NCBI GenBank assembly: GCA_021018995.1
Contig: CM037597.1
Span: forward strand, 37,884,936 to 37,948,935
Length of the DNA stretch: 64,000 nt
DNA from: Chloranthus sessilifolius
Lineage: Eukaryota > Streptophyta > Magnoliopsida > Chloranthales > Chloranthaceae
Direction of reading: 5' to 3'
The notes below the pieces were generated by a model. That model did no database searches, was not told where the DNA came from, and saw only the letters and a program-made list of their open reading frames with translations. Within the stretch, counting starts at the first letter, position 1, and every line of letters starts with the position of its first letter. Shown one piece after another: positions 461-45,774 of this stretch. Position numbers and translations under genes: made by a program.

Positions 461-2921
461 TGTGATAGCCCGGATTTTGGCACCCCGAAACATGTGCCAT
501 CGGCACAGCCCTTGAGGCCGTGCCCCATAATGTACGTGCGGAACACTTGGTACATCCCATTCATCATATTAAAGCATAAGAAACTAATGAAAAATATATC
601 TCCATTTCTACTATATGTTAATCCAAAAATACTTATCCAAAAGATAGTTATGATTTCATGACTCCGCATGAACAAAAGAACCAACCCGAACCATCAGTGT
701 CGTAGCTACGGTCACTCTCAATGGTTTGACAAAAGAATATTACAGATGCATTTACTCTTACAAAACAAGGCTGGACATACCAAGCTGTAATTCTCTCTCT
801 CCTTACAAAATACTATCAAAATACGCAGCAAGTCTTCTAGAAGAATCTCTCCGGAGGAGGCTCATACTCCTCCCTTGGAAAGTACTCTGAATCTCTGGGA
901 TCACCCTCACAAGTAGCAACTCCTAAGCTATCATCAATTCCTAAATCGTCACCTGTAACATATAGTCAAAGGGTGAGCTACATCCTAGCTCAATAGGGCA
1001 ATATCACAGCAAGTATATCCATCTTACAAACATATATTTCATGACAAGAATAAAACATGCACTCACAGATATGGCATTTCTTGAAAAATAACTTTAAGAT
1101 GTGATAAAATAATTTGACTACATTTATTACTCTACTGATGTATTTCTTTCAATGACTACTAGTTCCCTTAGTTACTATCAGGCTGAGATGATGACTTAAA
1201 TCTTAACTTAAAGAACCTCCGAGCAATATAGCATCTAGCCCCGATGGAATACCCTCCATCGTCATCTAATCAGACTATTTTTCATGAAATTGTCCCATCC
1301 CTTTTCTCTTAGGCGACGGGCACACTATTACTATACATCCCCGGGATGTCTGCTAGTGTACGGATTAGCCGCCGTACCGGTCACGGATATCCTGCCGAGT
1401 TAGTCATGGTTATCCCGCCGCGTCGATTGGGTATTCTCTGAACCTTAAATCCAATTGTGCAATAAATATAGTTGTTCACCGTGAATTTGTGCTAAAAGAT
1501 AATAACCCTCAGCCTATGCAATCATATTTACTATTTGTCTCTTAATGTGGATCTTTACGTCCACCATACATCCCTGGGATGTCAAGTTGTCTTATGCATC
1601 TCTGCGATGCCTATGTGCTCTTACATCCCTGGGATGATTTAACTCTTACTTAACAGTTTACTCTTATATTTGTGTAAACACACACCATTTCCATTAAACA
1701 CTACTCGTTGCATTAACTACAACTCAAAACAATCTTTAAAGAAACATGCATCATAAACTATCACTACATATGTTCTCATAATACAATGTACTAGTTTAGA
1801 TATTCCCCTACCTCAAAGCATCTCGAATCCTTGGATTCTCTAATCCGATCAAACTATTAGTAACCCAATGGTCCGATTCAACCTACGTACAGTCAATACA
1901 CAAAGAACATCACTATTGTGTTTAAACATTGGTTCATAAGGCCTAATGTTCAACCACACACAATTTACAAATCAAAATAGGTTTAAAACTTAATTTCATT
2001 CAAATCGATCGAATGATTTAAAATCGTTCGGACGATTCTCAAAATCGTTCGAACGGTTTCTAAATCGTTCGAACGAAATTCAATATCGTTCGAATGATTT
2101 TTATTTCGTTCGAACGAATTCTCCATATACCTTTTTCTCATCTGAGCAAAACCGTTCGATTGATTTTTATTTCGATCGAACGGTTTCCAAAATCGAAGGA
2201 ACGAATTATATTTCGTTCGAATTATTTAATTAGAAACCTTTTTCTTTTTCAATTCATCTCTTCAGGCCAAATTCGTTCAAACGGTTTGGAAAATCGTTTG
2301 ATCGAATTTGCCTATTCTCAACTTTGGATCGAGTTCATCACTTCTTGAACTCATCCAACCCCTTCTAAATCTTCACCAATCTCATATATTTATATCTATG
2401 TATATATATAACCATAAAGCTAATTAATCAAACTAATCTAAAGAATTTCTTAAGAAAATTCAGCTCACCTTTTATCAATTATTCCTTTGATCCCTAGCCT
2501 CAGTTTATTAGGGCTTCTCAAACCCCAAACCAAAAGTCTCTCCTCGATCCCAAGCTCGATTCGCTAGATTTCACGAGCCAAAGTTACTCGTTTGCATTCA
2601 TTACTCTTCTTCATTTATTTCTCAACAATTCTCCCCTCATTTACTATCTCCTTCTCTCTTAACTCTTCTTTACACTCAAAAGGAAATAACTCCTCCTTTA
2701 CTCCTTATAACCCATACCTCTACAACTTGGTTTAAAGCATATACAACTAACTCAGTGTATATACTCACACATCCTACTAATCACTCTTGTTCTACTTAAC
2801 TCTATCATCTCTCCATGTTCAACTAAGTCAACTGAGTCAATGTTGACCCGGTCAAACACCTGAACAGTTGGTCCGCTTCCCGAGGTGATCTATTTAAGTA
2901 CGAAATTTCTGGGATGTTACA
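461..2921 (-). repeat. 5' LTR of element F
   Basis: 2.46 kb LTR bounded by TG...CA (TGTGATAGCC at the left, GATGTTACA at the right). It shares short blocks with the LTRs of A, G and B: the GTACGGATTRGCCG...GGTCACGGATATCC segment near 1350-1440 and the terminal TGTAACRTCCC. Several 'catccctgggatg' inverted repeats lie at 1330-1640. AT-rich TATA-like tracts occur near 2385-2412. The palindrome cluster is at 1990-2335. The LTR end next to the primer site is at 461, fixing minus orientation. Confidence 0.85.
1990..2335. repeat. Palindrome array in LTR of F (CGTTCGAACG type)
   Basis: About ten degenerate copies of the 10-bp palindrome CGTTCGAACG or relatives (CGATCGAATG, CGTTCGGACG), separated by unrelated A/T-rich spacers of about 9-11 bp, so that neighbouring copies in the first run are 19-21 bp apart. 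Short open frames here are translations of the repeat and not genes. Confidence 0.85.
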
Positions 2922-4539
2922 ATATTTGTATCCTAAGCATGCATATACCAAGCATCATAGACATTATATGACCATTCTCCACAAGGCATTTACCACTCAT
3001 GATTAGATCAAGAAGGCCTTTCCTAAGGTTGTAATGGGGCTCGGGTAAAGGTTAAGGAAGAAAGGGGAAATTGGATTCAAATATCTCTAAGAAATTGGAA
3101 AAAGAAACACAATTGATTTTTTATTTTATTTTTCACACTTTCTTTTTCGAACCTTTCAGAAGCTTTTTCCTTTTTATCACTTTTCTCCTTTTCTTTTTCT
3201 TTTTAACACCACTTTTACATATTTTTCTACCTCTTGCACAAAGATATATTTTCTTCTTTACTCTCGTTTTTATTTTTCTGCCATATACTCCTTGCAAATA
3301 CTATCGTCATAACTTTCTATTTCCTTTCTTGCTCTCCTCCCTAATTTCTCAGAGATAAAAGGGTAAGGCTTTTCAAACTGGTGTGGGGTATGGTTAATAT
3401 GGCTTAACAAGGAATATTTAGGATAAAGTTTTTTAATCAAGGTTCAAAGGAGGTGCAACAAGACAAATCAGTGTATGGTGGGACATTTTAGGCACAAACG
3501 AGCCAAAGATAGCCTTTGATCATCTCCCCTCATGATGGTAATGATGCCTATTTGCCTTGAGTTTTTACACAATGATTTCTAGCACAATAATATAACACAT
3601 GCAAAATCAACAAATCGAAATAAAATATATGAGATTTCAATAATTAAGAATGAAGTTCAAAGATACTCTGAAAATTTTCAGCACTCATAAAAAACGAGGA
3701 CAAAGTTTCAAAGCTCGCTAGTTTTTTAGTCTTTCTTTGGAATCTTAGGATTTCAAGTTCTACACTTAATTCAGAATTTGGAATTAAAGCAAAGTGATGG
3801 TACAAACTTTCTGGTCATAGATCATGAACATCATTATTCAACTTTTAAAATTTATGAGCATTTGTAAAACAATCATGGTGCAATGGCAAATTCTTTACAA
3901 TTTTCCGATCATTAACAATTCAAGGATATGAGAGTAAAATTTGAAATTCATAAGTCTAATGGTCATCAGTCAATCGATTGACTCAATTTCCTCAATCGAT
4001 TGACTACTGCCAACTTCCAATAGGCCTGATGGTTATCTGTCGATCGATTAAGACAATTGTCTTAATCGATTGACTGATACACTTTTAATAGTCCGAGAAC
4101 AACCTTTTTTTTTTTTTTTTTTTTAAAAATAAAAATTAAATCTACACATATGAATCGAAAGGAATACCCCCCCAAACCTGAATCGTCCAATGTTCTCATT
4201 GGTTGAATTTTTGGAAAGTGAATGACACCCCCAAACCTGTTAAATGCAATCGAGAATGAGAACCAAATGATGGATCAAGTGAAAGGGTGAACATCAAAAT
4301 ATAAAAATAAAGACATTTAACTAAATTAAACTTTTATTGAAATTGCAATTGACTACATTTATTGAAAGAAAATAAAGAACTAATGAAAATAACCTAATCT
4401 AAAAACACTAAAAAGAAATAAATTGAAAAGAATTAAAAATCTAAATCCTAACGAGTCCTATCCCAAAATATTAAAGCACACTGGGTTGCCTCCCAGGAAG
4501 CGCTGAGTTTATGTGTCGACAGCTCGACCACTTCATTGT
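2922..4539 (-). other. 3' noncoding region of element D
   Basis: No gene seen. Reading the minus strand from integrase outward it holds: the 'lesser' polypurine tract at 4166-4180 preceded by a GAGAACATTGG block; an A/T run near 4105-4122; two CAATCGATTG palindrome pairs (3970-4073); the block GATCAAAGGCTATCTTTGG near 3500-3520, which recurs in element E near 32770-32795; and a T-rich stretch 3110-3345 whose open frame (3071-3358) is low complexity. The true 3' polypurine tract and 3' LTR are beyond element F. Confidence 0.7.
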
Positions 4540-5478
4540 TCACTTTTTTGGGTCTCTGAGGTACATCGTTTCAATCCTGAACTGGGTCATTGGCTCAAAC
4601 ATTGGTTTAAGTCGTTGCCCATTTACTTTGAAAATTCGATTGTCCTTCAGACTTCTAACTTCAATCGCACCGTGCACGGTAGTGGATACAACCTGAAATG
4701 GTCCTTCCCACCTTGATTTCAACTTTCCTGGATGGAGCTTAACTTTAGAGTTGAACAACCAAACCTTTTGTCCGATGTGAAACTCCTTCCGAGAAATTGA
4801 TTGATCGTGTAATTTTTTATACCGTTCCTTATACATCTTCGAATTTTCATACACATCATAGCGTAGCTCTTCTAGTTCGTTCAGCTGTAGCCTTCGATTG
4901 GACCCTGCCTCTTGCATATCGAAATTAAATCTTTTTATAGCCCAACATGTCTTATGCTCCAAGTCAACTGGGAGATAGCATACTTTCCCATATATAATTC
5001 TGAATGGCGACATTCCAATCGGTGTATTGAATGCAGTACGATATGCCCAAAGAGCATCAGATTACTGGTTCGACCAATCTCTCCTGTCCGGTCGTACCGT
5101 CTTTTCTAAAATTCGTTTGATCTCTTGATTGGACACTTCTACTTGACCACTAGTCTGCGAGTGGTACGGTGTTGCCACCTTGTGGGTGACGCCGTATTTT
5201 CTCATTAAAGTGGTAAAGTAACTATTGCAAAAGTGCGAACCGCCATCACTAAGGATTGCTCTTGGAATCCCAAATCTGTTGAACATATTTTCTTTCAAGA
5301 ATTTGACTACCACTTTATGGTCATTTGATCGGGTTGCCACAGCTTCTATCCATTTTGAAACGTAGTCAATGGCCACCAGAATGTATAAATAACTGAATGA
5401 TGGGGGAAAAGGACCCATGAAGTCGATCCCCCATAGATAAAAAATTTCAACAATCAAAATCGGGTTCAGTGGCATCAT
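4540..5478 (-). pseudogene. pol: Integrase region of element D
   Basis: Minus-strand blocks 5062-5478 and 4540-5013 carry the integrase catalytic core of a plant Ty3/gypsy element ([42 protein letters not shown]) followed by the C-terminal part ([24 protein letters not shown]). Integrase joins the cDNA copy to host DNA. No chromodomain follows, which fits Athila/Tat rather than chromovirus. Broken fossil. Confidence 0.85.
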
Positions 5479-5711
5479 ATTTCATCTTGAAATATTTCCA
5501 AGCTATTGACATCGTTGGCACTCTTTGTAAAATTTTAAGTGTCCTGAAAGATGGAGGGCCAGTAAAATTCGCTTTGAAAATTTTTTTGTGCGGTCTTTTA
5601 TCCTCTGAAATGGCCTTCACAGGCCCCAGCATGACAAAAATTTATGATGCTCAGTTGCTCTTCTTTAGGTACACATTTTTGGATGACTTGATCTGAACAG
5701 ACTTTGAACAA

Positions 5712-7259
5712 CTATGGTTCATCCCAAAAGTAGTATTTTATGTGGGAGAAGAAGAGACTCTTATCATTTTTATCCCATTGCGTAGGGATTCTGCCAGTGA
5801 CCAAATAATTCACGATACTAACAAACCAAGAAACTTTTATAGCTGTAGCATCGATTGCCATTAACTGCTCATCCGGAGAGGTGTCATGGATGGTCTCAAA
5901 TATAGATGATTCTTCATGTAAAATTCGTGACAAATGATCAACTATAATATTTTCGAACCCCTTTTTATCTTTGATCTCAAAGTTGAACTCTTGGAGAAGC
6001 AAGATCCATCGGATCAATCTTGGTTTTGTGTCCTTTTTTGCTAACAGATATTTTAATGCAGAGTGGTCTGAAAAGACCACTATTTTCGATCCGAGCAAAT
6101 AGGAACGGAATTTATCCAATGCATACACCATAGCTAGCAATTCCTTCTCGGTGGTGGTGTAATTTAGTTGTGCATCAATCAGTGTTTTACTGGCGTAGTA
6201 AATCACATGAGGTAATTTGTTTATCCTTTACCCTAAGACTGCTCTAATAGCATAGTCCAATGTATCGCACATGAGTTCAAAAGGAAGCGAATAATCTGGT
6301 GGTTGGATTATCGGTGCATTTGATAACAACTCGCACCGTTTTAGGAAGGTTTTCATGCATTCCTCATCAAATTCAAATAGAACATTTTGTCCAAGCAAGT
6401 TGCACAATGGCTTGGCAACCTTGCTAAAATCCTTGATAAATCTTTTATAAAATCTCGCATGCCCCAGAAATGATTGAATTTGTCGAACACTCTTTGGTGG
6501 TGGCAAATTAGCAATTAAGTCGACTTTTGCCTTGTTGACTTCAATTCCTTTCTTGGAAACGATATGTCCTAACACAATTCCTTGTTGAATCATAAAATGA
6601 CTCTTTTCTCAGTTTAAGACAAGACTAGATTCTACGCAACGTTGTAATACCTATGTCAAATAATTAAGACACATTTCGAAGGTCCTCCCAAAAACTGAGA
6701 AGTCATCCATGAATACTTCGATAAATTTGTCAACCATATCCGAGAATATTGCTAACATACAACGCTGAAAAGTGACCGGCGCATTGCAAAGTCCGAAAGG
6801 CATCCTTCGATAAGAAAAGGTACCATAAGGGCAAGTAAATGCTATCTTATCTTGATCTGATGGAAATACAGGCACTTGATTGTATCCCGAGTATCCATCA
6901 GGAAAATAATAATATTTTTGTCCTGCCAACTTTTCTAGAATCTGATCAATAAATGGTAAGGGAAAATGGTCCTTTCTCGCGGCGGTGTTCAATTTTTGAT
7001 AATTGGTACATATACGCCATCCAGTGGTCTCACGTGTAGGCACCAATTCTTCTTCAGTAGTCTCTTTTACTGTAATTCCTAACTTTTTGGGAACTATTTG
7101 AACTGGGCTTATCCATTCACTATCAGAGATCGCATAGATGATTTCAGCATCGAGTAACTTGATAATCTCTTTTAAAATAACTTCTTTCATGTTAGGATTA
7201 AGTCGCCTTTGTGGTTCCCTCGATGGTGTAATATCATCTTCCAGATGTATTTTGTGCAT
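5712..7259 (-). pseudogene. pol: Reverse transcriptase and RNase H region of element D
   Basis: Minus-strand RT block (6651-7259) shows TGWRICTNYQKLN, FPLPFIDQ, RMPFGLCNAP and the FMDD catalytic box; the block 6228-6593 continues the RT thumb/connection (QSFLGHARFYKRF) into the start of RNase H (FELMCD), and 5712-6206 carries the remaining RNase H ([24 protein letters not shown]). These copy the RNA genome into DNA. Sequence is of Athila/Tat type and closest in this window to element C. Broken fossil. Confidence 0.88.
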
Positions 7260-7291
7260 ACATATTAATGGAACAATTCCTTTAAGATCAG

Positions 7292-7942
7292 CTAAGGTCC
7301 ATCCGATAGCTTCTTTGTGGTCCTTAAGTACTTCAACAATTCATGCTCTTGTGTTTCCAATAATGTTGATGAAATTATTATCGGAAATGTTTCTTGAGGT
7401 CCCAAGAAAGCATATTTGAGTGACTCAAGCAGCTGCTTCAATGCAACAGTTGGTAGTTGCTTGATTGATGGTGTCAACTCAACCTTTGCCTCAATGGGTA
7501 ATGGTTCCACCTTAGTCTCAGTCACGCATGACTTATCATCTTGACTTGATGAATTCAACCTCTTCTCTTCTGGTTGTTTCTTTTCAGTTTCTTTCTACTG
7601 ATAGATGGCCAATAAGGCAGTTTCAAATTCTTCTTTGGTCAGCATTGACGACAAAGCTTCGTCCACTACTTCGTCCACTACTTCGTCCACCTGATCGATG
7701 TAGAAACGGTCAACCTCATCCTCATTTGGAAAGTGGTTCATCGCATGAAATATATTGAGTCTGACTTTCATGTTTCCAAAAGAAACATCCATGACTCCAG
7801 TGCGACAGTTAATACAAGCATTAGCGGTTGCGAGAAACGGACGTCCAAGAATGATTGAGACTTGATTTGTTGATTTAACAGGTGCTTCCATATCCAAAAC
7901 AGTAAAGTCCACTGGAAAGACAAATTTATCTATTCCAAACAA
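7292..7942 (-). pseudogene. pol: Protease tail and RT-proximal linker of element D
   Basis: Minus-strand block 7595-7942 contains VDFTVLDME and ILGRPFLATANA, the C-terminal signature of the aspartic protease in Athila/Tat elements, followed by an acidic linker with a short 'VDEVVDE' repeat (TCGTCCACTACT repeated at DNA level, 7660-7700). The block 7292-7558 is the linker before RT with the typical LKYAFLG and FPIIISS segments. Broken fossil. Confidence 0.75.
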
Positions 7943-8057
7943 AACATCTTCAATGATATCCCTGGGTCGTCTTTCTGACCTATCAGCCAGTTAGAGTGTA
8001 ACTGTCGTGGGTTTCAATTTGCCTAGTCTTAATTTCTCATACACTGAGATTATCAAG

Positions 8058-8435
8058 TTACTTAGCTATCTTGTCGGTGACATTATGAACTCTAAACATT
8101 TTACACACCCCAGTAAACTCATTTAAATGAATATGTGAATTTTCATTGGATAGACCATGGAAAATCGGTAATATTTGAATCATTGCGGATTTGAATTCAT
8201 AATGGTTTCTTGGAATGGGGGCATGCATGATACTATCCTGATCTTCGTAAATACCAGGATCATTGTAATACTCCATTGTTCTTGGCCCCTCATCATGATT
8301 ATTATTTCCATTATTAATATTTTGATTGTTTCCATTCCTCTCTTGCCTTTGATCTGCCATGGTTTTGGTATGATGATACTGAATCCTTCGGGTTCTACGA
8401 TTCTCTCTGCAAGACCTTTCAATTTCATGATTCAA
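8058..8435 (-). pseudogene. gag: gag fragment of element D
   Basis: Minus-strand frame with an Asn-rich N-terminal stretch, then NHYEFKSAMIQILP and HLNEFTGVCKMFRV, typical of the capsid start of Athila/Tat gag (compare C at 51,330 onward). Only part of gag is represented. Fossil. Confidence 0.75.
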
Positions 8436-9603
8436 CGGTCATAGATGTGGGTGATGAGATCGAGTAAAGCTCATGCACCAACACCCAAAACAAAGATTAA
8501 TGAATTCATAATAAACTCACAGATTTCAGATTCAATCGATTGAAGCAATGGTCTCAATCGATTGAAATAAAACACAACAATATTCCAACAGAGACTTATC
8601 AGTCAATCGATTGATGCATTAAAATCAACCGATCGAGGCTCCAAAGTCTAGCTAGTCAGCACAAAAATTTCTGCTGAGATGGCAAGCAATCAGAGGCCTA
8701 GTCAATCGATTGATAGAGAAATATCAATCGATTGAAAGAATTTTAACAATTTCACAGCAATAATATTTTGGTCTCAATCGATTGATAGAGAATTTTCAAT
8801 CGATTGATTTCTATGATGAACAGTAGTCAGTATCAAAAGCAAAGAAAATTAAATTTTGATTTTAAAAAAAAAAAATTAATTAAATTAAAATTAAAATTTT
8901 TTTGATTTTTTTTTGAATTTCAAAAATCAAAATTAAATATAAAAATTAAGATCTAAAATTTAAATTTTAAAAATAATAATTTAAATTTCAAAATTCAAAG
9001 TTTTAAAATCTAAAAATAATCCCACAAAATCTTATAAAATCTTACCTAAAAGAGGAAAAGAAGAAGAAGAATAAAAGACTCCTATAAATCCTAAACGAGA
9101 GATCCTAAAAATCCTCTACTCCGTAAAGGAACTCTACAAAATCTTATCAAAGAGAAGAAAATGAGGAAAAAAAAGATTTTGCAAATCAAAAATCAAAATG
9201 CCAAATTTAAATTTCAAAAATCAAAATTCACACAAGAAAATCAAAATTCAATTTAAAATTAAATTTCAAAATTCAAAATGCCAAATTCAAATTTCAAAAA
9301 TCAAAATTCAACTTTCAAGCTCCAAATTTCAAATTTCAACAATCTCAAAATTCTTATCATTCAAATTTTAAAAATCCAAAATTTCAATATTCAAAATTCA
9401 AAATTAAAAATTCAGATTTTTACTTGTTGGAATTTTAAAAATAAAAACTCAAAATAGTCGATCGATTGACGCAATCGACTCAATCGATTGACTAATCAGC
9501 ACACCAGAAACACAGAACACAGTCGATCGATTGAGGGAGAGGTCTCAATCGATTGACTGTCACACAAACACACAAATCTTCTTACGAATTATCAAAATTT
9601 CGC
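8436..9603 (-). other. Leader of element D with palindrome pairs
   Basis: No gene. Between gag and the primer site lie a long, A-rich, low-complexity tract (8830-9450; many variants of 'aaattcaaaat') and six palindrome pairs: 8532/8554, 8603/8625, 8702/8724, 8774/8796, 9458/9480 and 9523/9545 (start of each 12-mer). Consensus unit is TCAATCGATTGA, ten spacer bases, TCAATCGATTGA. The leader is unusually long for the family. Confidence 0.8.
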
Positions 9604-9625
9604 CGTTTCCTCGACAGCGGCACCA
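9604..9625 (-). other. Primer binding site of element D
   Basis: Minus strand reads TGGTGCCGCTGTCGAGGAAA, resembling the Athila/Tat primer site TGGCGCC.TTGCCGGGGA used by C (50808-50825). It lies about 20 bp inside the LTR. Confidence 0.7.
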
Positions 9626-9646
9626 AAAACTTAGTCAGTTTTAAAA

Positions 9647-10967
9647 TGTACCCTTGCAAGTGTACAAGATCGGTTGTAGTACGGTAAAATCAAGGGTGTC
9701 GAACCCACAGGAAAATATAAAATTTATTAATCCTTAAAGAGATTTAAAACACCCAAGGAAGTACTAAGGGAGAAAGTTCGATTTTCCAAATAATTACCAC
9801 ACTATTCTAGATGCAAGAAAACTAAACTAATCTGAGCAAGAATAATTTCTAATAAATAAAGGGATAATTTTAGGAATGATTAAGAGATTTGCTACCCCAG
9901 ATTTGTAACCTTTCTATCATTAAACCCACAATTCCATAACACATCAATCACACCATCATTTATCTAGAAAAATGAATCGTAAGAAAATGTGATCATCGAT
10001 CCGGCATACCCTATCTAAAAATGATGACTTAGCCTATCATTGCGGTATAAATTATGTAAAAAGTATAGCGTATCTCAAGATTCTTAAATCACGACCATGA
10101 ACATATAATCACTCTGTAGCCTAGATCGGCCTGCAGGTACAGATCTAGCGATTACGATCATTGATAACCTCGATCAACGGTCATAATAAAGCATTCAAAA
10201 GATATCCAATTAAACACAATTTTTAGCAGAATGATTCTATAATGAAATTAAGAAATTGTGGAGTTAATCATAAAAATTTTATTTATCTGGGGATCGCATC
10301 CTCCTTGAACAAATGATTTAGCCACTCATCCTTGGTGTACGATCTTGTTGTAAACTCAAAGCCATTCTCTTAAATATGTACTTTCTATTTATCACTAAAG
10401 ATCTCTTTACAATACTTTTCCTAAATACAATCTATGATCCCACAAACTATAAAAGAAAAAAATATAAAAGCCTAAGTACAATCTACCCAGAGAAAATCCT
10501 AAAAGAAAAAGAGAGAATAATTCTAAATGCCAAGGCTGAGAGAGGGCCTCCCCTAAAATAAAGCCGTAGCTTTCTTTATATAGGGGCGAGCAAAACATTT
10601 TCCTAATAACGTCAATCGATTGAGAATTCTTTCTCAATCGATTGACCTCAAATTTAAAATAAAGAGGGCAAAACTATCTCTCTTATCAATCGATTGACAT
10701 ATATTTCTCAATCGATTGACACATAGGGGTAGAGCTTTCATTCTCCTGGTGGATGTTGAGCTACTTCACGAATTTCGATGCTTCTTTTAATCTTTTAGTT
10801 CATTGCTCCTGCATAATCTTTAATTATCCTCTTTTATGCTCTTTAACGATCCAACGGTCAGAAACACCTGTAAACATTGAAACTATATAACCACCATGAG
10901 ATGCTTTCATCGGCTAGCTAAATGTAGGAATTAAGGTGTGAATATAGTCACATTTTGGCACCGATCA
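9647..10967 (-). repeat. 5' LTR of element D
   Basis: 1.32 kb LTR. The minus strand begins TGATCGGTGCC and ends ...TTGCAAGGGTACA. The primer-proximal end carries the common plant LTR block 'tgcaagtgtacaagatcgg...gtcgaacccacaggaa', also seen in E at 17,775 onward. A TATA box (CTATATAAAG on the minus strand) lies at 10574-10583. Two palindrome pairs (10612/10634 and 10686/10708) lie 30-140 bp upstream of it, in the promoter part. The left boundary could be off by some bases. Confidence 0.75.
10574..10583 (-). promoter_or_regulatory. TATA box in LTR of D
   Basis: CTATATAAAG on the minus strand, about 385 bp into the LTR, followed by GC-richer sequence expected at an RNA start about 30 bp downstream (near 10545). 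Two CAATCGATTG pairs sit directly upstream. Confidence 0.55.
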
Positions 10968-12595
10968 GAAAACTCCAACCATCGTCGTTCAATGAATAAT
11001 TTATACAGTGCCTAAGCCCCTTTGAACGAGGTGACTTGGGCTGAACAAAGTATTATCGTAGAATGATAATCAAAGAATAGATATCCCACCGTATCGAAGT
11101 ACAATTGTATGGATATCCCATCGTACAGGTCACGGACATACCGCCACGTCGGTAGGGTATTCATGCACGTGAACCTCAAATCAAAGTGCTAACTTTAACT
11201 TATAATTTATCAGTGTGAATTATGGTAAATTATAATAAGTTTGAAGTTTCAAGCTTACACACACACTTATTCATATCTTTCTGATGTCACACACACACAT
11301 TGCTAATTTCACACACACACAAATCTGATGTCACACACACACAATTTCTTTTAAGTGCACATACATAGACACTTTTCATATTTAAAACTATGAATGAAGT
11401 TAATACTAAATAACTGTCAAGATTCACAAATCACACGCATCCTTATCATATCACAAAATTCATGCTAGTTGTAATTAAATACACATGCTAATGAATTTTC
11501 CCTACCTCGAGCGAAGCCAAAATGAAGACTTCTTATTCCAAGCTAGCCCCTCTCACACATACACATGCTCATACTTAGAACACATCCAATCATGATTCAT
11601 GCACCAAAAATGACATAAAATGGAAAGGTATAAGGTTTCCCCCAAGTTCCCTTAACAAAACAAATCAAATTCCTGAATCTGTCCCAATCGATCAATTCCA
11701 AAACCAATCGATTGAAATACATTTCGATCAGTCAATTTTATCAAAAAATCAACTAATTTTGGTGCCACAATTCGATCGATCGGTTCTCGAATCGATTTCT
11801 AAATCGATCGATCGAATTTCATTTCGATCGATCGGTTCCTTTAGAAAACCTCAAACACACACTGTTTTCACAAATCGATCGATCAGTGTTCAAACTAATC
11901 GGTCGGTTTCACAAATTGATCGATCGAGTTTTATTTTGATCGATCGGTTTTTCCAAAAACCTTCATATTTTTTCTCTGACAGAATTGATCGATCGGATAC
12001 TTATTTCGATCCATCGATTTTGTCAGATTTATCACATATTGGGTCAAACTCATTTTTCTTATATTTTAACTTCTTTTCTTCTAATTTTTTACCCACATCC
12101 TAACCAAAGGCTAACACAACTATAAATCACAATTTAGCATAATTTTCTCACCTTTAATTGATCAATTCCTCAATCCACGTGCTCATGGTCCAACTAGGTT
12201 TTCATACTTGGAATTTGGGGATTCTCTTCGATCCTAAATCCACAACTTCACACATAGTCTCAGATCTTGCACACCACACACACAAATTTAAAGCTCACCT
12301 TCTCTCTCTCTTCTCAATAACTTCCTCAACAACCCAAAACCAAAGGAAATGAATTCTTCCTTAAAGGTTAGCTTTTATACTTAAAAGCTAAGTTTTAGGT
12401 GTTAAGCTGCTACACCGTACCTCGGTGTACGTTACTCTATCTAAGGATTCATATACTTTCTAACATCATTCTTTCTCACTCAAAACCTATTCTAACTTGA
12501 ACTTACTTTAATATTTTTTTATTATCAAGTGTGTGACCAGTCGGGCATGCACATCGAGAGGAACTGTTCAAAGGTCAATTTTTTGGGACTTTACA
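10968..12595 (-). repeat. Element G: chromovirus-like LTR, interrupted by D
   Basis: The right end (minus strand start TGTAAAGTCCC) and the block 'caggtcacggacataccgccacgtcggtagggtattc' near 11,130 match the LTRs of A, B and F, so this is part of an LTR of the same broad group in minus orientation. Its left part lies beyond element D, off the window. It holds a CA-repeat patch (about 11,260-11,355, four runs separated by short AT spacers), a palindrome array (11,765-12,030), and a TATA-like TATAAAAG on the minus strand near 12,370. No coding sequence. Confidence 0.7.
11765..12030. repeat. Palindrome array in LTR of G (CGATCGATCGG type)
   Basis: About ten degenerate copies of CGATCGATCG or CGATCGGTCG, in groups with about 9-12 bp A/T-rich spacers. 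The open frame 11759-12103, rich in FDRS/SIDR repeats, is the translation of this array and is not a gene. Confidence 0.8.
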
Positions 12596-12770: not shown

Positions 12771-14084
12771 GCATGCTCCCAATCCCACCATACCCAAATG
12801 AATCTTTGAAAAGCCCATCAACCACACATTACAAGCAGAATAGGAAAAAGAAGAAAATGAATCTAAAAGGCCATAAAATAAGCTTCATATTCTTCCTTTA
12901 AGAAACTCCACATTTTCAACTTCGCAAGTCATCTGCACCAGAAAGAGAACTTCCTATCTGAACCCTCTAATCGGACAATCAAGCACACATTGCTACACTG
13001 TGTTGTGCTTCTGACGGTGGGCACACATTGAACCATACAAAAATAAAGCAAAAAGACAATCAAGCACACATTGAGCCCTAAAAAAAAGGGAGTGTCAGTT
13101 TAACAAAAAATAAAATAAACTGTACTGTGTTTTTGACGGTGGGCACCCACTATCAAAGATCCATTAAAAAAAAATCGGCTATGACGGTGGGAACCCACTG
13201 TTAGAGCAACACAAGTGATAGCAGACATTCACCGCCAGATGTAAATTTTTTTCCTGACGGTGGGTGCCCACTGTTAGGTTTAAATTGTTGACAGCAGGCA
13301 GCTACCGTGAGGCCATCAGAGGTTGAACTCTAGTGAGGATTTTCACTGGAATTCAAACTCTGATGGCCTGGCGGTGGGGGTCTGCTGCCAAAGTTAGCAT
13401 TCCTGATAGTGGGCACCCACCGCCAGAAATTTTTTTAAAACTGACGGTGGGTTCCCACTATCATCCATGCTACAATGATAGTGGGTGCCCACCGTCACAT
13501 GACTATTTTTTTTTAAAATTTTGTCTAACAGTGGGTGCCCACCGTCAGGACTATGAATGTGACAGTAGGCACCCACCATCATGCCATCAGAGTTTGAATT
13601 CCAGTGAAAATCCTCACTAGAGTTCAACCTCTGATAGCCTCACAGTGGGTGCCTGTTGGCACCAATATACGCCTGACAGTGGGCACCCACCGTCAGGAAA
13701 AAAGTTTACATGTGGCGGGGGGTGCCTGCTGTCACTTGTGTTGCTTTGACAGGGGGTTCCCACCTTCAGAGCCATATTTTATTTTTGATGGATCTCTGAC
13801 AGTGGGTGCCCACTGTCAGGTTTGATACTCCAACAGTGGGTGCCCATCGTCAGAAAGTTCTCTTTCTGTGTGCTTGATTGTCTAATTTGATGGTTTAGAT
13901 AGGAAGTTCTCTTTCTGGTGCAGATGACTTGTAAAGCTGAAAATGTCAAGTTCTTAAAAGAAGCACATGAAGCTGATTTTATGGCCTTTTTAGATTCATT
14001 TTCCTTTTTTCTCATTCTGTTTGTAATGTGTGGTTGATGGGCTTTTCAAAGATTCATTTGGGTATGGTGGGATTGGGAACGTGC
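12771..14084. repeat. 1.3 kb fold-back (inverted repeat) element made of nested palindromes
   Basis: The two halves are imperfect reverse complements along almost their whole length, with centre near 13,430-13,475. Outer arms 12771-12988 and about 13,870-14084 match over about 215 bp; the inner arms 13,309-13,369 and 13,580-13,640 match almost perfectly over about 60 bp. Between them lie about 18 copies of a 22-bp palindrome with core GACGGTGGGTGCCCACCGTC, many slightly diverged. The left half is longer by about 100 bp, containing a second copy of 'gacaatcaagcacacattg'. No transposase, clear terminal motif or target duplication was found; it could be a Foldback/MULE- or CACTA-related nonautonomous DNA transposon. 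The open frames inside (13333-13825) are repeat translations. Confidence 0.85.
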
Positions 14085-18104: not shown

Positions 18105-20568
18105 TGTGACAGCCTGGATTTCAGTGCCCCGAAACCTGCGCCGTCAGTGGGCTGGCGCTAAGGCCGAGCCTCGAACAGATCCTATCGCATCACAACATGC
18201 ACAGCGAAATCTAAGCAGAACCATTTCAAACTCGTAGCATAAACAAAATAATGAACATTAACATTCAACCCCAAAACCCAAAAGATGGTTCTAATTCCAT
18301 AAGGAAGCCCGTGGAAAAAGAACCGGTGAGAACCACCGGTAAGGACCTTTCCTTACCGAAACATGGTTCAACAAAATGAATCGTTTATACCATTTAGAAG
18401 TCATCCCTCTCTCCATATCCCAAACAAAGCAAAATTTAATACATGACTCAGGGCTGGGCCTACCCAGGTCTAGCACAAAGGAAACAATCCTCAGGATGGG
18501 GCTCCTCAAGGTCCTCGTCGGGGAAGTAGTCCGGATCTTCCTTCTCTGGAATCTCCGCCTTAATACCTTCACTTGAACCTGTGACATTTGTAATGGGATG
18601 AGCTTCATCCAAACTCAGTAGGAAAAATCTTATAGCATGCTTATCATAACATCAAACACATATCTTATGGCATGATGAAAATGAAGTAATTCTAAACACA
18701 TGCGTAGAGGTGATTCTTCTAGCTTTAACACCCATATGCAATGTTGATGGTTTCATGAACATGCTCACATCTCCATTCCGACATAAGAAAGAAGAAACTT
18801 AAAGATGATTTACTTAAGATACTAGAATGAGGAACTATAGCCTCAAGCCCCCGATGGAATACCCACCATCGTCACTCACATGAGTCATTTGCACATAAAT
18901 CCAAGGTCCCATAGAGTTGGACACTTGGCCGAACACATATTTACAGTTATACGGTAGAATCACACAAAGCACATATCACAGGGGGTGTACGGATTGGCCG
19001 TCGTACCGGTCACGGATATCCTGCCGCGTCAGTCACGGTTATTCCGTCGCGTCGGTCGGGTATTCACATAACCTTAAATTGGAAGTGCATACATATAGCT
19101 TATCGCCGTGTAAGGTGATAATTATAATTTATGTCAAAACCGGGATGAAATATGAAGATCTCACATACACATGTCACAAAGGACCTCAAAGATTTCATAA
19201 GCTTCACATATTTTCAAATCAAACGTATCACATGCCTTATTCGCTTGAAGTCATATGCGGAAATCACATGGTCAAAGCAAAAAATGCATAATATCATAAC
19301 ACACGTATTAACGAAATTAATGCACATGATATCAAGCCTTCTCCCATTGACGATTCAATGCGTGCTCAAGCCTTCACAAAGGTCGGGTTCTTCTTACTCA
19401 CAAGGCTTACCTAAACATGAACATTTTCATTCATTAGAATGAGGCAAAACACACTGCTAAAGGTCCCCGTGAAAACTCAAGGTCAAAACTCAACAAATGA
19501 AGAAATCTGGGAAATTCGATCGATCGAGTCCCTATTTCGATCGATCGAAACTCAATTTCGATCGATCGAATCCATTTCGATCGGTCGAACTCTACAGAAA
19601 ACACACCAGTCACATACCCACTCGATCGGACGAATTCCCAATTCGATCGAACGAAAATAACTCGATCGATCGAATTTAAATTCGATCGGTCGAGTTCCGC
19701 AGAAAGCCTTTAACTTCAATTATAGTTCGATAGGACGAATCCCAATTCGTTCGATCGAAATTACATAATTCGATCGGTCGAATTCTCACAACAAAATTTC
19801 TAACGTTCTGTTTCTATACAAATCGATCGATCGAACTACAGGTGTCGATCGATCGAAAACTTTTCGTTCGATCGAAATCACTTTCGATCGAATGAATTTC
19901 TCAGGACATCGTTTTTTCCCATTTTTACTGTCATTTTGATCGATCGAATTTAAATTCGATCGATCGAAATGAGCAGATTTCGCTCATTTTTGGGTTTTTT
20001 CATCCCCCGATTTCTTCTCACTTTGAATCGATCTCACTTTCTTGTGATTTTCATATGAACACACACCAATTTAACTTTCCATAACACAAACTAAAACACG
20101 CATTCATATTCCATACCTTGCTCCAACGAATCCTCTTCCGTGATTCAAAATCAGAACTAGGGTTCTTCTAATGACAGCTGTTAGCCCTCATTCCCATTGG
20201 ATCAATCGCTTCTCTTCACACTATCAGTTCGTTCCCACATAGACAAGCATTCAATGCCCTAAAGTTTTTTTTTTTTTTCTCTCTCTCTCTCTCTCTCTTC
20301 TTTACTCCCAGTACATCATTTAATACACAATTAAATGCCCTAGGCTCTCTTTTATACACTAGCTCTTATACTTGTGTGTAAAACAGCTACACCGCAGGGA
20401 CGTGTGTGAGAGCCTCAAGCTCCCACATTCAGTCTACATAAGATCGATCCGGTCCATTGGATTTGATCTATAGACATTACATCAATGTAAAAGAGGTCCT
20501 CGGTGTATGATCCGTCGATACGCGCACCGAGTCTTACGGATCAAGGCCCAAAAGGTTGGGACGCTACA
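18105..20568 (-). repeat. 3' LTR of element A
   Basis: 2.46 kb, TGTGACAGCC at the left and ACGCTACA at the right. It contains the 'gtacggattggccgtcgtaccggtcacgg' block (about 18,990-19,060), a palindrome array (19,517-19,975), a T-run followed by (CT)n at 20,265-20,298, and a TATA-like GTATAAAAG (minus strand) near 20,350, about 210 bp into the LTR. Confidence 0.9.
19517..19975. repeat. Palindrome array in the 3' LTR of A (TTCGATCGATCGAA type)
   Basis: Seventeen recognisable copies of CGATCGATCG or close relatives (CGATCGGTCG, CGATCGGACG, CGTTCGATCG). Spacers within runs are 9-13 bp, giving 19-23 bp between copies; runs are separated by about 35-45 bp gaps. A copy of the array is in the 5' LTR at about 29,427-29,880. 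FDRS-rich frames here are not genes. Confidence 0.9.
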
Positions 20569-20871: not shown

Positions 20872-22410
20872 TTAAGTCCCAAAATAATTTGTAAACGAAG
20901 AAAGGTCCCTCAGCTCATAAAATCTGTGGAGGATCCCCCGCATCAGCTCCGCACCCTGGTATCTTTGGTTCGTCTGCCTCCTCCGATACAATATCAGCTT
21001 GCTCCCCTTCAACGTCGGCGTGGTCGTCATCAGCGTCGGCCTGGTCCTCACTAGGCTGTACGTCCTCCGCATCCAAGCCGGACGGAGCCACGCCATACAC
21101 CTGTGCTCACCTAGTTGTGATCCTTTGCATATAATCGGTGGGATACACGGCCTACAACACATCGCCGATGAGCAGCTCGAAGAAATCCAGACGCTGATTG
21201 ACCTGACGGTTGCTCTCCTGGATGAGAGCTGCCAAGTCTTCAGTAAAGGAGCGCTTCTTTGGGCCGGTGACGCGTACCTCAGCGAGGAATGTCGAAGGCA
21301 CATCTTGGGCGATGGAATGATCTCAGGCTGCTCGGGAACAGGAGCCTCAGGCATAGGATGGTTAGGAGGTGGTACGTCAGGAATAGGAGCATCCTGAATA
21401 GGTGCAACCTGAGGTTGTGGTGGAACAGGTGGCACTTGAGGGGCTGGTGGTAAGTGCGGCTTCAGGATATTATAGGTCTTCCTCCAATGCTTAAACGTGT
21501 AGAGGACCACGTTGTCAGACGACTTAGGTTCCTTTGGGGAGACCTTGTGCACGGTGGTGGTGGAAAACTCATAAAAAAGGGCAGAAATAAAACTGGCATA
21601 GGGAATGTATTCCTCGGGCTTTTCTGCTCCCGGTAGGAGCTTCTTCCTACCATGTTTAATTCCCTCAAAGATCACGGCTGCGGCGTCAAACCATTTGCCC
21701 TCAAAGGCGGCAAACAGGGCATTCATCAAAACACCTAATCGTTGGGTCTTATGGCGGATCGGATATAAATTACATTTAAAAATGGTGTCAAGGATCCACA
21801 TGTAGTTTGGTAGGTGAGCTCGGTTAATGGCTCGCCATTTTGCAACATGCCCTTGCGTCATCCGTTGGGCTATAAAGGTATGGGTTAGATTAGGGGGGTT
21901 GGGTGGTAATAATTCAATCCCTTCGCCGAAGGAGTCAAAACACTCTAAGGCCGCACAGGCCATCGCATGGGTAAAAGTATAGGTCTTGCCATCGACCTTG
22001 GTACATATTGTGGTATCGGGGTTTGGTCCATCAAACATATTTTGGTAAAATAAGCCCACAAGGCGCGGATAGGAGTAAGGATGAATGGGCTTCAAAAGGT
22101 TATCAAGCCCTACCTTACCCAAATAGTCGAGTGCCCAAGCATCAATGCCGGGCACATCGGGTGGTTCAAAAAGGGCTGGGTCGATGGTATATTCGTATGC
22201 GAAGCCCTTGTCCGCCCACCACTGGTTGGGTAGATTACGTTGAGGTGCTTGCGGAGCATCGGGTTGCTTGGCAGGCAATGTGGGTGGCGGAACAGGTGGT
22301 CGAATGGGTGGTTGAGGTGGGGGAACGGATGGTTGCGAAGGACCCGTAGCGGATTTGGGTCGCTTCGACGTTGGGGTCTTGGACGTGGCGGCTTTCCTTT
22401 TAGGTGCCAT
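20872..22410 (-). CDS. Extra sense ORF (aORF) of element A, putative plant transposon protein type
   Basis: Open frame of 512 residues between the chromodomain and the 3' LTR, same strand as pol. N-terminus is basic and NLS-like (MAPKRKAATSKTPTSKRPK), followed by a Pro-rich stretch (residues about 25-60), then a globular region of about 270 residues starting NQWWADKGFAYEY. That region (DNLLKPIHPYSYPRLVGLFY, VDGKTYTFTHAM, LPNYMWILDTIFKCNLYPI, HGRKKLL) resembles in layout the Pfam 'putative plant transposon protein' domain (PF20167); this assignment is from memory. Element B carries the same ORF (46403-47817); the two agree over about the first 330 residues. It has no signal peptide or membrane segment, so is not envelope-like. 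Function unknown. As part of a fossil element it may or may not be whole. Confidence 0.7.
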   Translation of the reverse strand: MAPKRKAATSKTPTSKRPKSATGPSQPSVPPPQPPIRPPVPPPTLPAKQPDAPQAPQRNLPNQWWADKGFAYEYTIDPALFEPPDVPGIDAWALDYLGKVGLDNLLKPIHPYSYPRLVGLFYQNMFDGPNPDTTICTKVDGKTYTFTHAMACAALECFDSFGEGIELLPPNPPNLTHTFIAQRMTQGHVAKWRAINRAHLPNYMWILDTIFKCNLYPIRHKTQRLGVLMNALFAAFEGKWFDAAAVIFEGIKHGRKKLLPGAEKPEEYIPYASFISALFYEFSTTTVHKVSPKEPKSSDNVVLYTFKHWRKTYNILKPHLPPAPQVPPVPPQPQVAPIQDAPIPDVPPPNHPMPEAPVPEQPEIIPSPKMCLRHSSLRYASPAQRSAPLLKTWQLSSRRATVRSISVWISSSCSSAMCCRPCIPPIICKGSQLGEHRCMAWLRPAWMRRTYSLVRTRPTLMTTTPTLKGSKLILYRRRQTNQRYQGAELMRGILHRFYELRDLSSFTNYFGT

Positions 22411-22679
22411 GCTGAGAAAGTTAGGGTTTTGGAAACAAGAACTAGAGTTTAGGGAATTTCAAAATTTTAGGTGAAAATGAGAGATTGATAATCCAAAAAT
22501 CCAAATGCTTACCGTTTGAAGACACTTTGGTTTGATTCTCGAGCGAAATAGGCGCAAATGGATGTTCTTGGGATTCTCGAAAGGAAAAAACTCTCGAAAA
22601 CCCAAACGGAACACTCAAAGTTTCAGAAAATTCGAATGGACAAAAGAAAAATTTTCACAGTTTATGCATATAAAGAAGA

Positions 22680-23100
22680 AATTCGATTGATCGAATTTGT
22701 TTCGATCGGTCGAAAATTAACTTTAACAGGAACTGAATCGATTTCGATCGATCGAATTCATTTCGATCGGTCGAAATTCATTCATTAATTACTAGTTTTC
22801 ACGATTTCGATCGAACAAATCTAAATTCGATTGACCGAATTCCATAATTCGATCGAACGAAATTGTTTTCGATCGGTCGAATTTCTCAGGCTAAAAGAAG
22901 GTTTGATCGAACGAAATGAATTTTCGTCCGGTTGAATTCAGAATTCGATCGATCGAAATAATTTCGATCGAATGAATTCACCTAGCCTTAGGAAAAATTT
23001 GTTGTCTCTGACAGTATAATTCGATCGGTTGAATGCACACTTCGATCGATCGATTTCATATTCGATCGATCGAAATTGAATTTCGATCGGTCAAATTTCC
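22680..23100. repeat. Internal palindrome array of A, upstream of the extra ORF
   Basis: About sixteen copies of CGATCGATCG-type palindromes between the end of the chromodomain frame (23242) and the extra ORF start (22410, minus strand). Spacing is again mostly about 19-22 bp. Directly after it on the minus strand is a TATA-like 'tttatatgcataaactgtg' (about 22,658-22,676), also present after the equivalent array in B. Confidence 0.85.
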
Positions 23101-28029: not shown

Positions 28030-30469
28030 TGTGACAGCCCAGATTTCGGCGCCCCGAAACCCGCGCCGTTAGTGGGCTGGTGCTAAGGCCGAGCCCCAAA
28101 CAGATCATATCGCGTCACAACATGCACAGTGGAATCTAAGCAGAACCATTTCAAACTCATAGTGTAAACAAAATAATGAACATTAACATTCAACCCCAAA
28201 ACCCAAAAGACGGTTCTAATTCCATAAGGAAGCCTGTGGAAAAAGAACCGGTGAGAATCACCGGTAAGGACCTTTCCTTACCGAAACATGATTCAACAAA
28301 ATGAATCGTTTATACCATTTAAAAGTCATCCCTCTCTCCATATCCAAAACAAAGCAAAATTTAATATATGACTTAGGGCCGGGCCTACCCAGGTCTAGCA
28401 CAAAGGAAACAATCCTCAGGATGGGGCTCCTCAAGGTCCTCGTCGGGGAAGTAGTCCGGATCTTCCTTCTTTGGAATCTTCGCCTCAATACCTTCACCTG
28501 AACCTGTGACATTTGTAATGGGATGAGCTTCATCCAACCTCAGTAGGAAAAATCTCATAGCATGCTTATCATAACGTCAAACACATATCTTATGGCATGA
28601 TGAAAACGAAGTAATTCTAAACACATGCGTAGAGGTGATTCTCCTAGCTTTAACACCCATATGCAATGTTGATGGTTTCATGAACATGCTCACATCTCCA
28701 TTCCGACATAAGAAAGAAGAAACTTAAAGATGCTTTACTTAAGATACTAGAATGAGGAACTATAGCCTCAAGCCCCCGATGGAATACCCACCATCGTCAC
28801 TCACATGAGTCATTTGCACATAAATCCAAGGTCCCATAGAGTTGGACACTTGGCCGAACACATATTTACAGTTATACGGTAGAATCACACAAAGCACATA
28901 TCACAGGGGGTGTACGGATTGGCCGTCGTACCGGTCACGGATATCCCTGCGCGTCGATCACGGTTATTCACGTCTAACCTTAAATCGGAAGTGCATACAT
29001 ATAGCTTATCGCCGTGTAAGGTGATAATTATAATTTATGTCAAAACCGGGATGAAATATGAAGATCTCACATACACATGTCACAAAGGACCTCAAAGATT
29101 TTATAAGCTTCACATATTTTCAAATCAAACGTATCACATGCCTTATTCGTTCGAAGTCATATGCGGAAATCACATGGTCAAAGCGAAAAATACATCATAT
29201 CATAACACACGTATTAACGAAATCAATGCACATGATATCAAGCCTTCCCTACCTCACAGATTCGACCCTTGCGTGCTCAAGCCTTCACAAAGGTCGGGTT
29301 CTTCTTACTCACAAGGCTTACCTAAACATGAACATTTTCATTCATTAGAATGAGGCAAAACACACTGCTTAAGGTCCCCGTGAAAACTCAAGGTCAAAAC
29401 TCAACAAACGAAGAAATATGGGAAATTCGATCGATCTTGTCCCTGTTTCGATCGATCGAAACTCAATTTCGATCGATTGAATCCATTTCGATCGGTGGAA
29501 CTCTACAGAAAACACACCAGTCACATACCCACTCGATCGGACGAATTCCCAATTCGATCGAACGAAAATAACTCGATCGATCGAATTTAAATTCGATCGG
29601 TCGAGTTCCGTAGAAAGCCTTTAACTTCAATTATAGTTCGATAGGATGAATCCCAATTCGTTCGATCGAAATTACATAATTCGATCGATCGAAATTAATT
29701 CAATCGGTCGAATTCTCACAACAAAATTTCTAACATTCTATTTCTATACAAATCGATCGATCGAACTACAGGTGTCGATCGATCGAAAACTTTTCGTTTG
29801 ATCGAAATCACTTTCGATCGAACTAATTTCTTAGGACATCATTTTTTCCCATTTTTACTGTCATTTCGATCGATCGAAATGAGCAGATTTCGCTCATTTT
29901 TGGGTTTTTTCACCCTCCGATTTCTTCTCACTTTGAATCGATCTCACTTTCTTGTGATTCTCATATCAACACACACCAATTTAACTTTCCATAACACAAA
30001 CTAAAACACGCATTCATATTCCATACCTTGCTCGAACGAATCCTCTTCCGTGATTCAAAATCGGAACTAGGGTTCTTCTAATGATAGCTGTTCGTTCTCA
30101 TTCCCATTAGATCAATCGCTTCTCTCCGCACTATCAGTTCGTTCCCACGTTGTTCACAAGCATTCAATGCCCTAAAGTTTTTTTCTCTCTCCCTCTCTCC
30201 TTTACTCCCACTACAACATTTAATACACAATTAAATGCCCTAGGCTCTCTTTTATACACTAGCTCCTATACTTGGGTGTAAAAAAGCTACACCGCAGGGA
30301 CGTGTGTGAGAGCCTCAAGCTCCCACATTCAGTCTACATAAGATCGATCCGGCCCCTCTGGATTTGATCTATAGACATTACATCAATGTAAAAGAGGTCC
30401 TCGATGCATGATTCGTCGATACGCGCACTGAGTCTTACGGATCAAGGCCCAAAAGGTTGGGACGTTACA
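28030..30469 (-). repeat. 5' LTR of element A
   Basis: 2.44 kb; closely matches the 3' LTR (18105-20568), including the palindrome array (about 29,427-29,880). Differences are mainly C/T and G/A, densest in the first 150 bp at the left end. Ends GACGTTACA, followed by the target duplication CTATC. Confidence 0.9.
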
Positions 30470-45621: not shown

Positions 45622-45774
45622 TCATGAGAAGGAGAAATTTTTTGTAATGGTCCTTTGTGATTAAATTATATGTAAATACTTTGAATGATCAATGACAGGG
45701 ATGAATTGGATGTTGAAGCATGAGAACGAGAAAGAACATTAAAAAACACAAAAAATTCTGTTGTTCTGCTGATT

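What the first reader, a model, noticed from the sequence alone, without database searches (positions are those of the whole stretch)
3970..10719. Ten palindrome pairs in element D, all exactly 22 bp apart
TCAATCGATTGA-like palindromes in D come in pairs. Starts of the 12-mers: 3970/3992, 4040/4062, 8532/8554, 8603/8625, 8702/8724, 8774/8796, 9458/9480, 9523/9545, 10612/10634, 10686/10708. Every pair is 22 bp apart, with a ten-base spacer of differing sequence, in the LTR promoter part, the leader and the 3' region. Constant spacing of about two helical turns with free spacer sequence suggests two dimeric proteins bound side by side on one DNA face, or a selected RNA/DNA stem. This pattern does not follow from simple duplication, because the spacers and pair surroundings differ.
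Basis: seen in the sequence. Interest (0 to 1): 0.88.

Follow-up and report, generated by a model that had tools for sequence, protein, structure and literature searches.

The report
Paired palindromes in plant retrotransposon control regions
A family of plant jumping genes carries pairs of a 12-letter palindrome held 22 letters apart in its control regions, most likely docking sites for a protein, and the same design with other palindromes recurs in other jumping genes of this genome.

Summary
Confirmed: all ten pairs exist, each exactly 22 bp apart. The genome (2.17 Gb) holds 64,441 exact TCAATCGATTGA (reversed control 79) and 22,664 pairs with spacers of 0-30 bp (control 0), 18,872 of them with exactly 10. 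D is a Ty3/gypsy element on the minus strand; its pairs lie in U3 just upstream of a TATA-like box, in the leader and after pol. Among nine related U3 sequences the arms stay 90-92% identical while spacers and near flanks fall to about 50%; within-pair steps stay 22 (25 of 26) while between-pair gaps vary. Two leader pairs recur at the same positions in relatives.

Spacers are partly homologous, so pairs were partly copied, then kept. Other palindromes show the same design at about 20.5 bp; two classes almost never mix (24 matches).

Best reading: dimer sites bound in pairs on one DNA face, driving LTR transcription. A hairpin stays a serious rival: arms changed on both sides tend to stay complementary. 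Precedent: palindromic LTR boxes of Sireviruses, including Tnd-1 ACAATCGATTGT, with the same core. New variant of a known kind.

The parts
10686..10719 (.). pair 10 (U3, farther from TATA); both arms exact
   Evidence: kept intact in D's 3' LTR
10612..10645 (.). pair 9 (U3, ending 29 bp upstream of the TATA-like box); both arms exact
   Evidence: in D's 3' LTR both central CpGs are lost
10574..10582 (-). TATA-like box TATATAAAG of D
   Evidence: read; function inferred
9640..10961 (-). 5' LTR of D (ends approximate)
   Evidence: 92.3% match to a second copy at -13862 to -12540 in window coordinates
9608..9625 (-). primer-binding-site-like stretch just behind the LTR
   Evidence: read; the tRNA-Asp type is recalled, D's copy is degenerate
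9523..9556 (.). pair 8 (leader, 84/106 nt behind the LTR); one arm TCGATCGATTGA
9458..9491 (.). pair 7 (leader, 149/171 nt behind the LTR); one arm TCGATCGATTGA
8774..8807 (.). pair 6 (leader); both arms exact
8702..8735 (.). pair 5 (leader); both arms exact
8603..8636 (.). pair 4 (leader); one arm TCAACCGATCGA
8532..8565 (.). pair 3 (leader, next to gag); both arms exact
8058..8435 (-). ORF at the gag position; no Pfam family
6651..7259 (-). reverse transcriptase ORF piece of D
   Evidence: RVT_1, 1.2e-16
5712..6206 (-). RNase H ORF piece of D
   Evidence: RT_RNaseH, 1.5e-25
5062..5478 (-). integrase ORF piece of D
   Evidence: rve, 3.3e-17
4040..4073 (.). pair 2 (after pol); arms TCGATCGATTAA and TTAATCGATTGA, spacer itself a palindrome
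3970..4003 (.). pair 1 (after pol); both arms exact

Best explanation
The 34-bp unit (12-bp palindrome, 10-bp free spacer, 12-bp palindrome) is a cis-regulatory module of an LTR retrotransposon lineage. Each palindrome is a site for one dimeric DNA-binding protein. The exact 22-bp step puts two dimers about two helical turns apart on one face, where they contact each other. Two such units just upstream of TATA raise transcription from U3; copies in the leader and after pol add to the effect. Units multiply by duplication, after which arms and step are kept while spacers drift. Shown: geometry, its constancy, positions, arm conservation. Inferred: that a protein binds, which one, and that it activates. 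D's two LTRs are 7.7% apart and D is interrupted by another element, so this copy is a relic.
For: One spacing holds 18,872 of 22,664 pairs. Arms 0.92 and 0.90 identical against 0.50 and 0.49 in spacers and 0.47 in 60 nt of flanks over nine U3 sequences; 25 of 26 within-pair steps are 22 while between-pair steps run from 28 to 73. Pairs sit just upstream of the TATA-like box in D and near relatives and at the same leader positions. Sister motifs stand at 19-23 bp, mean near 20.5, in chains of up to 6 with odd numbers too. CG palindromes cluster at 20-22 bp in 120 kb while palindromes without CG do not. Palindromic LTR boxes are thought to be cis-regulatory in Sireviruses.
Against: No binding or expression data. 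Eight of ten D pairs are not in the promoter. Double changes tend to be complementary between arms, as a stem would have it. Six of the eight relatives came from stretches chosen because they hold exact pairs. The sites in L015 are partly decayed and half of one pair's columns are gaps. The step of sister motifs (20-21) differs from 22.
Confidence: 0.55

Rival explanations
1. The unit acts as a hairpin in RNA (or cruciform DNA): the two arms pair into a stem of 12 bp or more with a 10-nt loop, used for packaging, dimerisation, stability or translation of the element's RNA.
For: Five regions holding the ten pairs fold with z -4.1 to -9.0, 0 of 200 shuffles as good in each. Of 84 distinct units 14 have both arms changed; their complementarity is 10.57 of 12 against 9.62 (0 of 5000 shuffles), direct likeness is not raised. 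Hybrid arms occur 56 times in inverted and 2 times in direct order. First spacer bases tend to be complementary (p 0.003 in 53 pairs; p 0.02 in 39 spacers). Pairs lie just behind the primer site, where packaging signals of retroviruses lie (recalled).
Against: Self-complementary arms fold well whatever their role. No covariation by arm column among 53 pairs. 44 of the 50 listed inverted hybrids belong to one spacer group. A stem needs neither palindromic arms nor an exact loop length. Sister motifs form odd-numbered chains. U3 pairs sit before TATA. A symmetric protein tetramer or templated correction of near-palindromes would also give complementary arms.
Confidence: 0.25
2. The sites dock an anti-silencing protein, element- or host-encoded, that clears methylation from its own lineage only, as VANC does for VANDAL elements.
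For: Motif arrays through non-coding parts, duplicated in tandem, differing between lineages and almost unmixed (24 matches), resemble VANC targets (passages). Loss of the central CpG in D's 3' LTR fits methylation of silenced copies.
Against: No such gene was sought or found in D. Unmixed classes also follow from separate descent. No methylation data.
Confidence: 0.12
3. Nothing is selected: one ancestral pair was copied by duplication and element spread, and the constant step is plain inheritance.
For: D's spacers are more alike than chance; a 70-bp tandem duplication; U3 and leader pairs are orthologous across copies.
Against: Over nine U3 sequences arms exceed spacers and flanks by 40 points. 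In homologous-looking units arms differ at 5% and the rest at 37% (71 of 71; arms were the search key). In D with two loci picked without regard to the motif (3 sequence pairs) arms are 0.80 and 0.99 against 0.47 and 0.32 in spacers. Between-pair gaps change length, within-pair steps hardly do.
Confidence: 0.08

Closest known systems
Palindromic repeated motifs (RM boxes) of Sirevirus LTRs, Ty1/copia (Bousios 2010, PMC2829016; passages, section 9)
   Same: Short palindromes in many copies in the LTR upstream of TATA and in other non-coding parts; one of them, Tnd-1 ACAATCGATTGT (8 copies, 100% identity), has the same 10-bp core CAATCGATTG.
   Different: D is Ty3/gypsy by domain order; no CGG-CCG core (Tnd-1 lacks it too); copies in strict pairs at 22 bp and in the leader. 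The section read gives no spacing between boxes.
Palindrome clusters of maize Sirevirus LTRs to which small RNAs map (Bousios 2016, not held; known here from passages of PMC10760457)
   Same: Clusters of palindromes in the cis-regulatory part of an LTR, with predicted secondary structure.
   Different: Copia; other motif (CACCGGACNNNGTCCGGTG); no fixed 22-bp pairing in the passages seen; no small-RNA data here.
VANC target motifs of VANDAL transposons (PMC5735166, passages)
   Same: Family-specific short motifs accumulated by tandem duplication in non-coding parts.
   Different: Motif YAGTATTAY; 'palindrom' and 'spacing' do not occur in that text; VANDALs are DNA transposons (recalled); no such protein sought in D.
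Athila-type Ty3/gypsy elements (recalled)
   Same: RT-RNase H-IN order; relative L007 has TTTTTGGCGCCGTTGCCGGGGA behind its LTR, the primer-site form I recall for this lineage.
   Different: Lineage not tested by a tree; D's own primer-site-like stretch is degenerate.

Membership tests
Ty3/gypsy LTR retrotransposon | RT and RNase H before integrase | tested here: met
   minus-strand order RT, RNase H, IN
Ty3/gypsy LTR retrotransposon | two LTRs in the same orientation | tested here: met
   9640-10961 and -13862 to -12540, 92.3% identical
Sirevirus (Ty1/copia) | Ty1/copia domain order (integrase before RT; recalled) | tested here: not met
Sirevirus repeated motif | palindromic motif in at least 8 copies, LTR copies upstream of TATA | tested here: met
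   20 arms in D, four in U3 before the TATA-like box; definition
Sirevirus repeated motif | CGG-CCG core | tested here: not met
   core is AATCGATT; Tnd-1 also lacks it
Athila lineage | placement in a pol tree | not tested
   no tree was built
Athila lineage | tRNA-Asp-type primer site (recalled) | tested here: inconclusive
   clear in relative L007, degenerate in D
VANC-type anti-silencing target | element encodes a protein that binds the motif | not tested
   no gene of that kind was sought
Functional RNA hairpin | folds better than shuffled sequence | tested here: met
   z -4.1 to -9.0; expected from palindromic arms in any case
Functional RNA hairpin | compensatory changes between arms | tested here: inconclusive
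   for; against; direct control for did not complete

The most novel reading that the evidence does not exclude
The plant's LTR retrotransposons carry a lineage-specific address code: each lineage keeps its own palindrome (TCAATCGATTGA at 22 bp; TTGATCGATCAA, TCGATTAATCGA, TCGATCGATCGA and TCGTTCGAACGA at about 20.5 bp), repeated at two helical turns through its non-coding DNA and read by a cognate, co-evolving protein that activates or un-silences only that lineage. Four of the five motifs are related by symmetric CpG-decay steps, as if sites were shedding methylatable CpGs while keeping their symmetry.
Probability: 0.2. Interest if true: 0.85.

Novelty: new variant of a known kind. Interest (0 to 1): 0.62.

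Why it matters
Why some LTR retrotransposons fill plant genomes is often put down to their cis-regulatory code, which is seldom visible from sequence alone. Here one module is counted in tens of thousands of copies with fixed geometry, stays readable in LTRs that are otherwise about 61-75% identical, and recurs with different palindromes in other families. That gives a clean bait for finding the host or element protein that reads it, and ready contrasts (spacing, motif class, decayed CpG) for tests of activation, methylation and small-RNA models. The same core in a tobacco Copia element (Tnd-1; host recalled) suggests that unrelated retrotransposons may exploit one conserved plant factor.

Tried and rejected
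Chance: rejected. A tandem 22-bp repeat as the source of each pair: only weak direct-register signals (two of ten positions with p 0.026 and 0.035). Hairpin as the sole cause: not adopted, for the reasons under the rivals; the first test found no arm covariation, a later one on doubly changed units did, and both are reported. W-box and HD-Zip readings of the motif were considered from memory and dropped for lack of a test. Species: the protein search with ORF 20872-22410 scored nothing and the RT search listed only hits in various flowering plants and unnamed contigs among the names shown, so the plant is not named. A scan dividing inverted repeats by palindromic and other arms was confounded by shifted windows and redone (201 inverted repeats with a palindrome at the arm, 108 without, 15 in one Markov sequence per locus); the 108 vary in loop length in the rows shown. 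In one search the counts at 18 and 26 bp contain register-shifted matches such as 3966/3992. Rows dropped: L003 (overlaps L004) in the scripts on stretches, also L001, L002 and L004; D's 3' LTR, the second L010 copy and L006 in the nine-sequence means. Literature was searched; no listing showed a description of 22-bp palindrome pairs, but most subscription journals are not held and most listed papers were seen as listings only.
Full report
WHAT IS THERE. All ten pairs are at the coordinates given, each with 22 bp between starts; 15 of 20 arms are exact TCAATCGATTGA. Element D lies on the minus strand with RT, RNase H and integrase in Ty3/gypsy order and an ORF at the gag position that matches no Pfam family. 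Its 5' LTR is about window 9640-10961. A second LTR, 92.3% identical and in the same orientation, lies outside the window at -13862 to -12540 in window coordinates, beyond another element inserted into D whose right LTR ends near 2921 (the insertion is inferred). So 10612 and 10686 are in U3, upstream of a TATA-like box (29 bp gap); 8532-9556 lie in the leader; 3970-4073 lie downstream of pol. None lies in the ORFs named under parts.

CHANCE AND SPREAD. The window's own genome (2,168,743,587 bases, 32 contigs) has 64,441 exact 12-mers against 79 for the reversed string, 22,664 pairs with a spacer of 0-30 against 0 for the control, and 18,872 at exactly 10. In the first 50 listed pairs the spacer is 10 in 35, 9 in 3, 11 in 3, and 13-30 in 9. 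In the window and stretches held by then, chains of sites with at most one mismatch are nearly always pairs (79 of 83 chains with two or more sites; 30 sites stand alone) and 81 of 89 steps are 22. Ten of those stretches (L005-L014) were chosen because listed pairs lie in them; L015-L024 were taken at one fixed coordinate on ten contigs.

CONSERVATION IN RELATIVES. D's LTR matches, at about 61-76% identity, L014, L010 (two copies), L008, L009, L007, L006, L023, L015 and, in part, L011. Over nine distinct U3 sequences (D and eight relatives) mean pairwise identity is 0.92 and 0.90 in the arms of the two pairs, 0.50 and 0.49 in their spacers, 0.47 in 60 nt of flanks and 0.70 in the rest of U3 upstream. 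Six of the eight relatives come from stretches chosen for exact pairs; L015 and L023 do not. With D, L015 and L023 alone (3 sequence pairs) pair 1 gives 0.80 against 0.47 and pair 2 gives 0.99 against 0.32, but in L015 18 of 37 columns of pair 2 are gaps and L023 has lost part of pair 1. Of the steps near 20 bp listed for twelve U3 copies, 25 are 22 and one (L008) is 21; the other steps run from 28 to 73. L014 lacks one site of pair 1. L008 and L009 have further sites beyond the aligned pairs, and in L006 and L007 there are four pairs. Behind the LTR, sites stand at 84/106 and 149/171 nt in D, 85/107 and 149/171 in L007, 86/108 and 151/173 in L010, and 80 and 147/169 in L009; the other five of nine copies examined (L014, L008, L006, L023, L015) show, by eye, no primer-site-like start and have no site in 1300 nt. 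After insertion copies decay: D's 3' LTR has lost both central CpGs of one pair and kept the other pair.

DUPLICATION. 3950-4005 and 4020-4075 are 79% identical, and the left flanks of 9458 and 9523 are 60% alike. D's ten spacers are more alike than letter-shuffled spacers (4.18 against 3.38, 0 of 2000). Among 92 units, 71 comparisons look homologous outside the arms; in 71 of 71 the arms diverge less (5%) than the rest (37%), with the caveat that arms were the search key. So units were copied, then arms and step were kept.

THE WIDER PATTERN. Other palindromes show the same design: TTGATCGATCAA, 33,275 pairs with a 0-30 spacer, 8-9 in 42 of the 50 listed; TCGATTAATCGA, 129,894 pairs, listed spacers mostly 7-9 by eye; TCGATCGATCGA and TCGTTCGAACGA in the window and stretches. 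Steps of these four run from 19 to 23 with means near 20.5 (my arithmetic) in chains of up to 6, odd numbers included. In 120 kb (L015-L026: ten stretches at a fixed coordinate plus 20 kb beside the window) there are 116 CG palindromes of 10 bp or more against a mean of 23.6 in Markov sequence, with 22 neighbour distances at 20-22 bp; 111 mixed palindromes without CG show no peak. Of neighbours 18-24 bp apart 38 of 50 share the same core, against 578 of 3502 for those over 2 kb apart. TCAATCGATTGA followed within 30 bp by TTGATCGATCAA gives 24 matches on the two strands. TCAATCGATTGA, TTGATCGATCAA and TCGATTAATCGA differ from TCGATCGATCGA by symmetric CpG-type transitions; TCGTTCGAACGA does not (read from the sequences).

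PROTEIN SITES OR STEM. For protein sites: arms remain palindromes, the step is fixed, the position is upstream of TATA, and sister motifs form odd ladders near two turns. For a stem: folding z-scores of -4.1 to -9.0; complementarity of doubly changed arms (14 of 84 units; 10.57 against 9.62, 0 of 5000 shuffles; one of the 14 belongs to the TCGATCGATCGA class); spacer base 1 (p 0.003 in 53 pairs; p 0.02 in 39 distinct spacers); and 56 inverted hybrid pairs against 2 direct ones, of which 44 of the 50 listed belong to one spacer group and the rest to four others. The opposite inverted order was not searched. Against a stem: no covariation by arm column and none in the outer flanks among 53 pairs, and the three TCGATCGATT arms of D leave an A-C mismatch in the RNA sense (read). 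A dyad-symmetric protein complex, or templated correction of near-palindromes, would also give complementary arms. One compensated transition pair was counted (33), but its direct control did not complete. I hold protein sites at 0.55 and a stem at 0.25.

WHAT IS KNOWN. Bousios and colleagues (PMC2829016; passages, section 9) describe palindromic repeated motifs in Sirevirus LTRs upstream of TATA; their Table 3 gives ACAATCGATTGT, 8 copies, for Tnd-1. Passages of PMC10760457 report that small RNAs map to palindrome clusters of maize Sireviruses and that palindromic arrays are often cis-regulatory. VANC targets (PMC5735166, passages) are motif repeats read by a TE-encoded protein. D is not a Sirevirus (domain order not met), but its control regions look built on the same principle. 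What I did not find in the papers seen: a Ty3/gypsy host, exact 22-bp pairing, leader copies at fixed positions, and parallel motif classes with their own steps.

Noticed in passing
window 11684-12013, 19516-19956, 22679-23062, 29448-29866, 38890-39327, 45774-46121, 48730-49168: Clusters of TCGATCGATCGA-like palindromes about 19-23 bp apart in other elements, four of them inside long LTR-like repeats.
   Followed up: partly
window 2001-2290: TCGTTCGAACGA palindromes in the right LTR (about 461-2921) of an element that appears to be inserted into D.
   Followed up: partly
L016 579-6825; L021 326-370; L024 665-8638: Further palindrome classes: CGATACGTATCG at 14 or 26 bp and ATCGATATCGAT-like at 22 bp and multiples.
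   Followed up: no
window 13134-13818: A long inverted repeat (80% over 700 bp) with repeated GGGTGCCCAC-like palindromic stretches.
   Followed up: no
window 20872-22410 and 46645-47817: Related ORFs; the first is weakly like PF20167 'Putative plant transposon protein', below its cut-off, and scored no relative in the protein search.
   Followed up: partly
window 9186-9414: AT-rich repeat with a 14-bp rhythm (AAATTTCAAAAATC type) in D's leader between the two groups of pairs.
   Followed up: no
L026, match of window 10612-10645: Both central CpGs of one pair in D's 3' LTR read TpG while the neighbouring pair is intact, as expected from methylation decay.
   Followed up: yes
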